NCBI GenBank assembly: GCA_029779475.1
Contig: JAKPAN010000196.1
Location: 1-57,602, forward strand
DNA: 57,602 nucleotides
Direction: 5' to 3'
Source of the DNA: Pseudomonadota bacterium
GTDB lineage: Bacteria; Pseudomonadota; Gammaproteobacteria; Xanthomonadales; Rhodanobacteraceae
Notes under the pieces: generated by a model
Told to the model about the DNA's origin: nothing
The model's input: the letters and a program-made list of their open reading frames with translations, nothing else
Database searches by the model: none
Part shown: positions 9,170-13,246 of the stretch, one piece after another
How positions within the stretch are numbered: position 1 is the stretch's first letter
Layout: each line of letters starts with the position of its first letter
Translations under genes and position numbers: made by a program

Positions 9170-9637
9170 TCAGGGCTGCTTCACGAGCGCGACGAATCGC
9201 GCCGCCAACGTCGCCGCGTCGCCGCCCTCGGCCAGCGGCACGCGGCATTCGATGTTGAGCCGCGCCTTGCCGCGCGTGGCCAGCGTCGCGAAGAACGCGT
9301 CGAACGATTCGCCGTCGGCGAGCCGCGAGACCGCGTCGAAATCGCCCCATACCGGCGCGAGATAACGGATCGCGCTGTCCTGCACGTAGATGTCGCAATC
9401 GAGTCCGCGCGCCGCGACGGCAAGCCGGATCACGCCCCAGCCCGCGAGCGTCATCAGGCTTGCAAGGCTGCCGCCGAACGCGCAGCCCTTGTCGTTGATG
9501 TTCGGCGCGAGCGGTGCGGCGAGCGTGAGCGAATCGCCGTCGTGCGCGGCCACGCGCAGCGCCATTGCGCGGGCGAGCGGGATTTCGTCGAGCAGTTCGT
9601 GCTGCAGCTGCTCGATCAGGGATGTCGCGTCGGTCAT
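9170..9637 (-). CDS. YiiD C-terminal-type thioesterase (hotdog fold)
   Basis: A 155-residue protein from the ATG at 9637. The pattern LLDEIPLARAMALRV (N-terminal helix), then APLAPNINDKGCAFGGSLASLMTLAGWG, is the hotdog-fold signature of the YiiD_C putative thioesterase domain: an Asn-x-N-x-K-G-C/T-x-F-G-G loop leading into the central helix. It probably hydrolyses an acyl thioester, with substrate unknown. The ATG overlaps the stop codon of the upstream repeat-protein gene (ATGA, 9634-9637), implying translational coupling. Longer reading frames upstream were discarded because they run antisense-like into the repeat gene. Confidence 0.82.
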   Translation of the reverse strand: MTDATSLIEQLQHELLDEIPLARAMALRVAAHDGDSLTLAAPLAPNINDKGCAFGGSLASLMTLAGWGVIRLAVAARGLDCDIYVQDSAIRYLAPVWGDFDAVSRLADGESFDAFFATLATRGKARLNIECRVPLAEGGDAATLAARFVALVKQP

Positions 9638-11850
9638 CGTTTTGTCCGCGCGGAGCGCAACACGGAGGCTGCTTCGAAGCCGTTCGCGAATATCGGATCG
9701 GGACGCGTCAGCGAGAAATCCGCGCGCGACAGGGCGGGCGTCGTCGGAAAGGCGACGGCGGTCGCCCCGGTCAATGCGCATTGGCCGAGATAGGCCGGTC
9801 CGTTCGGACAGGCGATGCCGGAAAAAACCTGATCGACATGGCCCGTTCCGGCGTCGGTGGAAAGCCATCGGGAATCGGACGTGCAAGGTCCGCTGTCGTC
9901 GATCGCGTAATAGCCGTCGAGATCGGTCGACGCATCGTCACAATGCGCGCCGCCTTGCGTGTCCCAAGCGTCGACGACGACACCGGGCACGCCTTGGCCC
10001 GACACGGCGTCGACGACGCGGCCGACGAGTCGGCGCGCATGGATCAAGCTGAAATCGATATTGGTGCGCTGCGTGCCTTGGGCCAGCGTAATGGAAGTGC
10101 CTACCGATGGATCGCATGCCGTGCCAACGCTCGGGCAATCGATGCCCGAATAGATCTGCGAGAACGAGGATGCATCGATGGCTTGGACGAAGTACGTGCC
10201 GGCCGGGAGGTCGTTGAAGATGTATTGGCCCGATGCGTCCGCGGCGGCATAACGCAATTGAGTACCGATCGAGTCGTACAGCGAGATCGAAGCCCACGCA
10301 GGCGTGGGTGACGTGAGGCTGGCGTCGCCTACGCGCCCCGCAATGCTGCCATTCAGCGGCAGTGTCATGTCGATGCCGGCGAGGTCGACGGCGCCGACCG
10401 CGATGGGCGTCGCCGCGGTGAGCTGGCAACCCGACGTGAAACCCGGCCAGTTGTCGCTGCATGGCGCGTTCGCGTAGACAAGGTCGTGGTGATCCGCGCT
10501 CGATGCGCGCAACCAGTAAGTGCCAGGCGGCACCCCGGTGAACGTGTAGGTTCCATCATCCATCGTGAAGATCGAGAATTGGAGGAAACCACCTGTCGTC
10601 GGCCAAAGCATCAATGCGACGCCTCCCAAGCCCTGGCCCGTCGATCTGTCGGCGATGCGGCCACTCACGTTCGCGAGCGCACGCAAGTCGAATGCCGCGG
10701 TCGGTTCGGTCGTGCCGGTCGACACTTGCAATGGCCTTCCTGCGGCGGCCGATTCGTTGACGCAGTCCGTGGCGCAATCGACGTGGTCGTACAGCTGCGA
10801 CACGTGATTGCGCAGGGATACGGCGAAACGATACGAGCCCGGCACGAGAGGTCCCAGATCGGTAGCTTGACCGATGGCCGCGTAGCCGATGGGGAGTTGC
10901 GTTCCGGCACTGTCGAACGCGGTGACGTTGGCGAAATCCCACGGGGTGGTTCCCGCCGCGTTGACGACCACCCGCAAGAACGCTGCGGGATGCAGGTTGA
11001 AGTCTGCATGGTCGAAGGTGCCTTGTTGCGCAAGCGTGATCGCGGCGCCGGTGTTGCCGCCGCAGGATTGTCCCGTCGGGCAATCCACGCCGTCGAACGC
11101 CTGCACCAGGTAACGATTCGAGGTCGCCAGGACGTGATAATCGCCGGCGGCAAGCCCATCCAGGGTGAAACGGCCAGCGCCATCGGACTGCGTGGTCGGC
11201 AAGGTGAAGTCGACGGGATGCACGGGCACGGCTTGGATGTTCACGTTGGCGATCGCCAGGCCCGTCTCGGCATCGCGGACCCGGCCGCTGATTCGTGCGC
11301 CCTGGTTGAGCGAGAAATCGATGCCCGTGATGAAGTCCGTGTTGGCGACGGTCAGCATCTGCGCGGGTGAGCCCACGCAGTTTTGTGCATAGAACGAGCC
11401 ACATTCGACATCGGGCCACAGCTTGGGGAGGTTGCCACTCGCCGATGCGGCCACGTAGTAAGTACCGGGAGCGACAGCCAGTTCATATTCCCCGCTCGCG
11501 GACGTCTGGGCGCCACTGGTGTAGAAGCCGGACGAATTGATCGCATCGACCTGCGCTGAGGCTGGATAAGAAGACGTGGCGACCCAACTGACTGTGCCGC
11601 TGATTGTCCCGGTCTCGTCCGCGACGATGCCGACCTCGCCGCGCGCGCCGATATTGCGCACGAGCAGCCAATATGCCTTGCGTTGCGCGGATGGTTCGAG
11701 AACTGCGGCCGCTGCGAGTCCGAAGGCATCGTCGCTCGTCGACAACGGCGCTTCGCCGTGGGTGGGACAGGTGCCGAACACGGCGATCTCCGTATCCAGC
11801 GGACTCACCGCAGTATCGACCTTGATCGCGTGCGCGGCGGACGCTTCCAC
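9634..11850 (-). pseudogene. Secreted carboxypeptidase-regulatory repeat protein, part after in-frame TAG
   Basis: The larger part (about 738 residues) of a gene whose first part lies at 11857-12354 in the same frame. It has no signal peptide of its own. It opens with the rest of a pre-peptidase C-terminal (PPC)-like beta domain (HVEASAAHAIKVD, TEIAVFGTCP), followed by about six beta-sandwich repeats of the CarboxypepD_reg/Cna-B type. Each repeat has G-x-I/V-x-G-x-V/I (GTISGTV, ARISGRV, GSIAGRV, RLVGRVVD), a T-x-D-D/G-x-Y-x-F/I strand, and an A-G-T-Y-x-V-x-A ending. Between repeats are paired cysteines (IDCPSVGTAC, VDCPTGQSC). It ends DPIFANGFEAASVLRSARTKR. The intact protein was probably a cell-surface or extracellular adhesin-like protein. 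Translation from GTG 11850 would give an unexported fragment. Confidence 0.8.
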
Positions 11851-11856
11851 ATGCAG

Positions 11857-12354
11857 CTAGACTTCCGCGCCGGTTTCGAGCATGCCATCGAGTTCGTGGC
11901 CTGCGCCGAGTCCGAGCGCTGCCTCGCAGCGGCCGCCGTGGTGCGCGTCGAGCCGCGTGAACGTCGAGCGCGCATTCGCCGGCTTGTGTTCCGGCACGAG
12001 CGCTTGCGCGACGGTCGAGGCGCCGAACGCACGGGCGTGTTCGAGGTTGCCGACCAGCATCGACACGCTGTGCAGCTTGCGTGCGAGCACGCTGGCATCG
12101 GCGCTGCCGATGCGGTGCACCTGGGTGAAGGCGTCGACCTGTTTGCGCAGATCGGCCGCGCGCGAATCAAGAATGGTAGATGTTTGCGCAGGCGAGTTGC
12201 GGCGCGCTGCGTCGATTTCCCGGCTGGCTTCGTAGGTCTGGGTGGACAGGATTCGCAGCGTGCCGAGCGCTGCGCCTTCTTCCGTTGCCTGCACGATTCC
12301 GCTGGCCGATATCCCGCCTGCAGCGATCAGCAGGCCCGCAACGAACATTCGCAT
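11857..12354 (-). pseudogene. Secreted repeat protein, N-terminal part ended by in-frame TAG
   Basis: Begins at the ATG at 12354 after a clear AAGGAGG ribosome binding site, with a signal peptide (MRMFVAGLLIAAGGISASGIVQA). It continues as a helical region (EIDAARRNSPAQTSTIL, ADLRKQVDAFTQVHRIG) and a segment ETGAEV that stops at TAG (11857-11859). The next codons in the same frame read LHVEASAAHAIKVD, the expected continuation of a PPC-like beta domain. This and the 9634-11850 frame are therefore one gene of about 906 codons with a single nonsense codon after residue 165. The 165-residue product would be exported but lack the repeats. A sequencing error, a recent mutation or amber readthrough would each explain it. 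Confidence 0.82.
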
Positions 12355-12413
12355 CCTGTCCTCCTTCGTCCCCGGGAGTCGGCAACGTTCGGAAGCCGCC
12401 AACGATCGGCGCG

Positions 12414-12419: not shown

Positions 12420-12487
12420 GCATCAACGAATGGCCGCGCGTGATCGACATGGAATCGGCGACTGAGAGCGCACGACGAAGAACGGAA

Positions 12488-13246
12488 ATGCTGCGCGGCG
12501 CTGTCGTCGTCATCACTCGCCCCTCCGGAACTGCCACCGCGCTCGCGCGTGCGACGCTGCGCATGGGCGGCTCGCCGCTGCTGCTGCCCGGCCTGAGCGT
12601 GCGCGCGACGCGTGACGCCGCCGTCGCATCGTGTCTGCATGCGCCATCGTTCGACGACTGGATCTTCACGAGCCCCGCCGCGGTGCGCGCGTGTTTCGCG
12701 CTCGCGCCGTCGTTGCGCCTGCCGCGTCGCGCGCGCGCGTTCGCGGTCGGCGCGGGCACGCGGCGCGCGCTCGCGCGGCGCGGCGTCGATGCATTCGCGC
12801 CGGGGTCGGGCGCGGACAGCGAAGCGTTACTTGCCTTGCCGATGCTCGCCGACGTGCACGGTCATCGCATCGCGCTGGTCGGCGCGAGCGGCGGCCGCAA
12901 CCTCATCGCGCCGACGTTGCGCGAGCGCGGCGCGCTCGTCGAGGCGATCCACGTATACGAACGCCACGCAGCGCGGCTGACGCGTCGTCATTTCGATGCG
13001 CTGGCCGCCGCGCCGCAACCGTGGATCACGCTGCTGTCGAGCGCGGAAGCGCTCTCCCACCTGTGCGCATGCCTGCCGGCCGATCTTGCCGCGCGTTGGC
13101 GCGCGCAACCCATCGTCGTCGCCAGTGAACGGCTCGCCGCGCTTGCGCGGGCACAAGGCTTCGACGACGTCGGCGTCGCACGCAGCGCGCTCGGCGAAGA
13201 TCTGCTCGACGCCGCCGCGCGGCGCCTCGCGCGTCACCGACTTTGA
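12488..13246 (+). CDS. hemD: Uroporphyrinogen-III synthase
   Basis: Closes and isomerises hydroxymethylbilane to uroporphyrinogen III in heme/siroheme synthesis. The protein is very divergent, as is usual for HemD. It has GAVVVITRPSGTATAL at the start, FDDWIFTSPAAVRACF, AFAVGAGTRRAL, HRIALVGASGGRNLIAPTLRERGALVEAIHVYER, and the segment WITLLSSAEALSHL, which corresponds to the family's S/T-S-x-x-A/S motif. I use ATG 12488 (252 residues, weak purine-rich ribosome binding site); GTG 12440 or ATG 12449 would add 13-16 residues. The hemX and hemY genes that follow support the call strongly. Confidence 0.85.
   Translation: MLRGAVVVITRPSGTATALARATLRMGGSPLLLPGLSVRATRDAAVASCLHAPSFDDWIFTSPAAVRACFALAPSLRLPRRARAFAVGAGTRRALARRGVDAFAPGSGADSEALLALPMLADVHGHRIALVGASGGRNLIAPTLRERGALVEAIHVYERHAARLTRRHFDALAAAPQPWITLLSSAEALSHLCACLPADLAARWRAQPIVVASERLAALARAQGFDDVGVARSALGEDLLDAAARRLARHRL

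What the first reader, a model, noticed from the sequence alone, without database searches (positions are those of the whole stretch)
9634..12354. Large secreted repeat-protein gene interrupted by one in-frame TAG
Seen: frames 11857-12354 and 9634-11850 on the reverse strand are in the same phase, separated by only the TAG at 11857-11859 and two codons (CTG CAT) before a GTG. Codons on both sides read as one continuous PPC-like domain (ETGAEV-stop-LHVEASAAHAIKVD), the first part carries the ribosome binding site and signal peptide, and the second part carries all the repeats and the IFANGFE tail. Inference: a single-base nonsense mutation, assembly error, or amber readthrough. The C-terminal part and its terminator-free coupling to the thioesterase look otherwise intact, so the loss would be recent.
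Basis: partly seen in the sequence, partly recalled or inferred. Interest (0 to 1): 0.72.

Follow-up and report, generated by a model that had tools for sequence, protein, structure and literature searches.

The report
Surface-protein gene cut by stop codon
A gene for a large exported protein in an environmental bacterium is cut in two by a single stop codon that the relatives found here lack at that place, most likely a recent and ordinary loss-of-function change, although two of those relatives carry a stop of their own elsewhere in the gene.

Summary
On the minus strand one frame runs from 12354 to 9634, broken only by TAG at 11857-11859. The genome is a draft (335 contigs, 86.7% complete) in the genus of Dokdonella sp. 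BIN16. All nine other full-length members found have a residue at that column; none ends there. The downstream part is coding, keeps the family's cysteines and shows no excess of changes at conserved columns, so the stop is recent or the sequence is still selected. RF1 is present; no CTA-anticodon tRNA was found, but the tRNA set is incomplete. No start tested after the stop has a leader. Best reading: a recent nonsense allele of a dispensable exported beta-repeat protein; the gene is absent between its flanks in 11 of 16 genus genomes. Less expected: 3 of 10 full-length members carry one internal stop each (TAG, TAA, TGA; three places, three genera), against 0 of 62 matches to a conserved enzyme. 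But the sample is small, all three lie in drafts of 270 or more contigs, and eight partial matches to longer homologues have none. Reads are needed to exclude an error. Known kind, modest interest.

The parts
12360..12366 (-). Shine-Dalgarno sequence AAGGAGG, 5 nt before the ATG
   Evidence: sequence
11860..12354 (-). upstream open part, 165 codons: hydrophobic leader (about codons 1-23, cleavage site judged by eye), helical stretch, start of a beta domain
   Evidence: helices and strands from the low-confidence model of the uninterrupted relative
11857..11859 (-). in-frame TAG, codon 166
   Evidence: a residue stands at this column in 9 of 9 other full-length members
9634..11856 (-). downstream open part, 740 codons plus TGA: rest of the split beta domain, then CarboxypepD_reg / prealbumin-like repeats
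   Evidence: Pfam PF13620, 5 stretches, E 3.6e-41; codon bias
9673..9693 (-). IFANGFE motif near the C-terminus; relatives end in varied forms of it
9634..9637 (-). ATGA overlap of the gene's stop with the start of the thioesterase gene
9170..9637 (-). YiiD-type thioesterase gene, downstream flank; matched in 16 of 16 genus genomes
   Evidence: TIGR02447, E 7.4e-38
12440..13246 (+). divergent upstream flank, uroporphyrinogen-III synthase-like (hemD; the name is recalled, no family search was made of it)
   Evidence: tblastn against genus loci

Best explanation
It is one gene for a large exported protein (leader, helical stretch, one beta domain, a row of CarboxypepD_reg-type repeats with cysteine pairs, GFE-type tail) that carries a recent single nonsense codon. 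Shown: one frame, one stop, a residue at that column in the other members found, no detected decay downstream. Inferred: ribosomes end at codon 166, the exported 165-residue stub is of no use, and the repeat part is made little or not at all because no restart offers a new signal peptide; the overlapping thioesterase may be translated less. The protein is dispensable, so such an allele can rise in a population and could later be lost for good or undone.
For: Stop and frame. 9 of 9 other full-length members have a residue at the column. All 14 cysteine columns (chosen as cysteine in at least 8 of 10 rows) are kept in this gene; it departs at 7 of 68 columns where at least 80% of the others agree (its own stop counted among the 7 if that column qualifies), against 8 of 70 to 19 of 77 in the seven uninterrupted members. 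Positive codon bias downstream. RF1 over its cut-off. No CTA tRNA among 28 found. None of 14 candidate starts in codons 167-450 begins a stretch as hydrophobic as the true leader (at most 1.51 against 2.32). Syntenic uninterrupted relative at 33% identity in G010 = Dokdonella sp. BIN16. Site without the gene in 11 of 16 genus genomes. Purifying selection in the family: dN/dS 0.235 over 244 codons in one close pair of other species.
Against: A 335-contig draft: a wrong base call or strain mixture was not testable. An intact downstream part fits readthrough too. Two other members with stops elsewhere show no clear decay either (11 of 69 and 8 of 71; at columns where all others agree 6 of 41, tied highest, and 1 of 36), which fits tolerated stops or errors as well as recent loss. 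The dN/dS value is from other species and covers only the N-terminal part.
Confidence: 0.72

Rival explanations
1. Sequencing or assembly error, or a minority-strain base in the draft genome; the gene is normal.
For: Draft of 335 contigs, 86.7% complete, 4.45% contaminated. One codon is affected and the rest looks intact. All three interrupted members lie in genomes of 270 or more contigs, and the two members from genomes of 20 and 30 contigs are uninterrupted.
Against: RF1 and the gamma-glutamyltranspeptidase of this same genome have no stop inside. Of 62 matches to that enzyme in 60 of 230 family genomes, fragmented drafts included, 0 have a stop inside, two of the matches being partial, so isolated errors of this kind look rare. 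Five other members from genomes of 290 to 860 contigs (G281, G299, G267, G279 twice) are uninterrupted.
Confidence: 0.17
2. Programmed or tolerated amber readthrough: a small share of ribosomes inserts a residue at the TAG and a low amount of full-length protein is made.
For: No detected decay downstream. Belinky et al. 2021 (PMC7918605; abstract and outline, part 1 of 2 of Results, part 1 of 2 of Discussion) argue that in-frame stops are widespread in bacterial genes, mostly short-lived, and may lower expression.
Against: RF1 present. No CTA tRNA found, though the set is incomplete. The RNA around and after the stop folds no better than shuffles, z 0.91. The three interrupted members have different stops in different places and, by eye, no common context. 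No other member has a stop at this column.
Confidence: 0.08
3. Two separate genes, the second starting at GTG 11850 by stop-restart.
For: The GTG begins six bases after the TAG, with a weak 4-of-6 Shine-Dalgarno match 11 bases before it.
Against: None of the 9 other full-length members ends or breaks here; the restart product has no leader although it is rich in cysteine pairs.
Confidence: 0.02

Closest known systems
Nonsense-interrupted bacterial genes with intact downstream frame (Belinky et al. 2021, PMC7918605)
   Same: single in-frame stop, relatives without it, downstream sequence without detected decay, apparently short-lived
   Different: no strains sharing the stop are at hand here, so persistence and dN/dS after the stop cannot be measured
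CarboxypepD_reg (PF13620) / SdrD_B (PF17210) repeat proteins
   Same: PF13620 over its cut-off in this protein and in 7 of 7 uninterrupted members scanned, PF17210 over its cut-off in this protein and in 5 of those 7; among the best PDB matches of the model are Gram-positive pilins and SdrD B-repeats
   Different: Gram-negative; paired cysteines in the repeats; GFE-type tail; a cell-wall anchor was not looked for; the fold matches rest on a low-confidence model (mean pLDDT 63.2) and have TM-scores of at most 0.17 by query length

Membership tests
Nonsense pseudogene / nonsense allele | in-frame stop within an otherwise continuous frame | tested here: met
Nonsense pseudogene / nonsense allele | relatives uninterrupted at that point | tested here: met
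   9 of 9 other full-length members; two of the nine are interrupted elsewhere
Nonsense pseudogene / nonsense allele | stop supported by reads | not testable with these tools
   no reads available
Nonsense pseudogene / nonsense allele | relaxed selection downstream | tested here: inconclusive
   no excess of departures at conserved columns; no close relative for dN/dS of this gene
Amber recoding / suppression | tRNA with CTA anticodon | tested here: inconclusive
   0 of 28 tRNAs found; none called Trp, Tyr, His, Ile or Asp was found either
Amber recoding / suppression | loss of RF1 | tested here: not met
   prfA 530.8 bits, cut-off 423.25
Amber recoding / suppression | conserved stop position and stimulating context | tested here: not met
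   no shared position or, by eye, context; z 0.91 for the RNA around the stop
CarboxypepD_reg repeat protein | PF13620 over its gathering score | tested here: met
   139.8 bits against 32.3
   only sub-threshold PPC matches, in the repeats; none within E 0.01 in seven uninterrupted members

The most novel reading that the evidence does not exclude
This exported repeat-protein family is repeatedly switched off by single nonsense codons that arise independently in different lineages and stay shallow enough to be undone, so the stop works as a short-term off or low-expression state of a surface protein rather than as final gene death.
Probability: 0.15. Interest if true: 0.55.

Novelty: new member of a known kind. 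Interest (0 to 1): 0.3.

Why it matters
By itself it is an annotation matter: one gene, not two. If the rate of 3 in 10 held in isolates, the family would be a compact natural case for asking how often surface genes pass through reversible nonsense states, the question that Belinky et al. raise from bulk data.

Tried and rejected
Two-gene reading: disfavoured, no other full-length member ends there. Suppressor tRNA: none found, weak because the tRNA set is incomplete. RNA structure around the stop: none beyond chance. Selenocysteine: a tRNA-Sec (TCA) was found, but it reads UGA, not UAG. Mobile origin: no match on plasmids for P0001 at E 1e-20, on phages for the uninterrupted relative P0004 at E 1e-10, or in viral contigs for A1.

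Counting. In one search two further 'stops inside' (G281, G299) proved to be terminal stops and were not counted. Left out of the ten full-length members (from nine genomes): G243, whose match ends short near a contig end, and G293, cut by a contig end. With those two in the denominator the Fisher value is 0.0034 instead of 0.0020. Eight partial matches to longer homologues (six, one each) have no stop inside; against 3 of 10 that is no clear difference (one-sided hypergeometric 120/816 = 0.15, by hand). The enzyme control is more conserved than this family, and the comparison was made after seeing the data.

Searches with little yield: the first genome-contig scan, with P0003, found no relative; the second, with A1, returned five loci, of which two are family members and three weak matches in other phyla. 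The 369 genomes drawn from the class gave only the own genome. Papers: seven searches. Three asked about the genus or the domain and listed 1, 0 and 0 papers; the one is a species description, seen as a listing only.

Full report
What is there. On the minus strand one frame runs from an ATG at 12354, preceded by AAGGAGG, to a TGA at 9634-9636. It is open except for TAG at 11857-11859, codon 166. The upstream 165 codons hold a hydrophobic leader; the downstream 740 codons hold the repeats. Pfam finds CarboxypepD_reg (PF13620) in five stretches with E 3.6e-41 in the downstream part, and nothing over a cut-off in the upstream part. By composition 740 open codons have a chance of about 9e-8. The codon score of the downstream part is positive and the best of six frames, but lower than that of the upstream part, and its third-position GC is below that of the seven reference genes.

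Where it is. The window is contig 144 of a draft genome of 3.23 Mb in 335 contigs, 86.7% complete and 4.45% contaminated. A genome of the same genus, G010, has the gene on a contig of the same length (1,233,864) as that of Dokdonella sp. BIN16, so the genus is that of BIN16. The gene lies between a divergent hemD-like gene and a YiiD-type thioesterase, whose start overlaps the gene's stop as ATGA. In 11 of 16 genus genomes a hemD-like match lies next to the thioesterase without the repeat gene (in two of the 11, L069 and L071, the hemD-like match is cut by the end of the stretch). Two (G000, G010) have the repeat gene between them; G003 and G015 show no hemD-like match (G003's contig ends, G015's locus begins at base 206 of its contig), and G014 has other neighbours. 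The gene is therefore dispensable in the genus, gained or often lost.

Relatives. With the read-through protein, 3 of 233 genomes of the family match at E 1e-30 or better. With a profile, 15 of 398 genomes of the order match at 1e-60, 5 of 10 and 4 of 9 in two other families, and of 369 drawn from the class only the own genome. Ten matches, from nine genomes, are full-length. The nine other than this one all have a residue at the column of the TAG. So it is one gene, and the stop is private to this genome among those searched.

Is the rest decaying? No sign by these tests. All 14 cysteine columns are kept in all 10 rows (columns chosen as cysteine in at least 8 of 10). At columns where at least 80% of the others agree, this gene departs at 7 of 68, the other two interrupted members at 11 of 69 and 8 of 71, the seven uninterrupted ones at 8 of 70 to 19 of 77. 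At columns where all others agree the figures are 3 of 38, 6 of 41 and 1 of 36, against 0 of 35 to 6 of 41. One close pair of other species (G299, G293) gives dN/dS 0.235 over the first 244 codons, so the N-terminal part is under purifying selection there.

Recoding? RF1 is present with 530.8 bits. Among 28 tRNAs none has a CTA anticodon, but none called Trp, Tyr, His, Ile or Asp was found either, so the set is incomplete. The 115 bases around and after the stop fold no better than shuffles, z 0.91. None of 14 candidate starts in codons 167-450 begins a stretch as hydrophobic as the true leader (at most 1.51 against 2.32).

The less expected part. Two more full-length members have one internal stop each: G223 (Rudaea sp. 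MAG_CA158) a TAA at codon 72, and G255 a TGA at codon 364. That makes 3 of 10, with three different codons, places and genera. In 230 family genomes, 0 of 62 matches to a 555-residue gamma-glutamyltranspeptidase had a stop inside (Fisher 0.0020). Against this: the enzyme is more conserved, the comparison was not planned beforehand, eight partial matches to longer homologues have none, and all three interrupted members come from genomes of 270 or more contigs while the members from genomes of 20 and 30 contigs are uninterrupted. Different places and codons speak against a programmed site and for repeated, recent loss of a dispensable protein, or for errors in fragmented drafts.

What the protein probably is. 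A low-confidence model of the uninterrupted relative (mean pLDDT 63.2, pTM 0.34, three sequences) shows helices at the N-terminus and then beta domains in a row; the residue at the stop column, 167 there, lies in a strand at 165-170. The highest-ranked PDB matches are the B. anthracis TIE protein, B. cereus pilin BcpA, streptococcal proteases of the SpyCEP kind and SdrD A2-A3-B1-B2, with TM-scores of at most 0.17 by query length among the 50 listed. A role as an exported stalk or adhesin is an inference.

Verdict. It is most likely a recent nonsense allele; an error in the draft cannot be ruled out; readthrough is possible but has no positive support.

Noticed in passing
L017/L094 (G223, Rudaea sp. 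MAG_CA158) and L051/L086 (G255): Two other full-length family members each carry one in-frame internal stop (TAA, codon 72; TGA, codon 364) with the frame intact afterwards.
   Followed up: yes
L087 (G293) 2234 against L052 (G299) 1865: Two close species match at 93% over the N-terminal part and then diverge sharply at the first repeat, as if the repeat region had been exchanged.
   Followed up: partly
G000:C48, L002 from 1177: A paralogue of 595 residues stop to stop with several nearly identical repeats and a RNGFE motif near its end, suggesting recent tandem expansion.
   Followed up: no
G000:C54, L047 1497-1592: A selenocysteine tRNA (anticodon TCA) in the genome.
   Followed up: no
window 9634-9637 and L007: The gene overlaps the thioesterase start (ATGA) here, whereas in G010 (Dokdonella sp. 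BIN16) about 90 bases separate them.
   Followed up: partly
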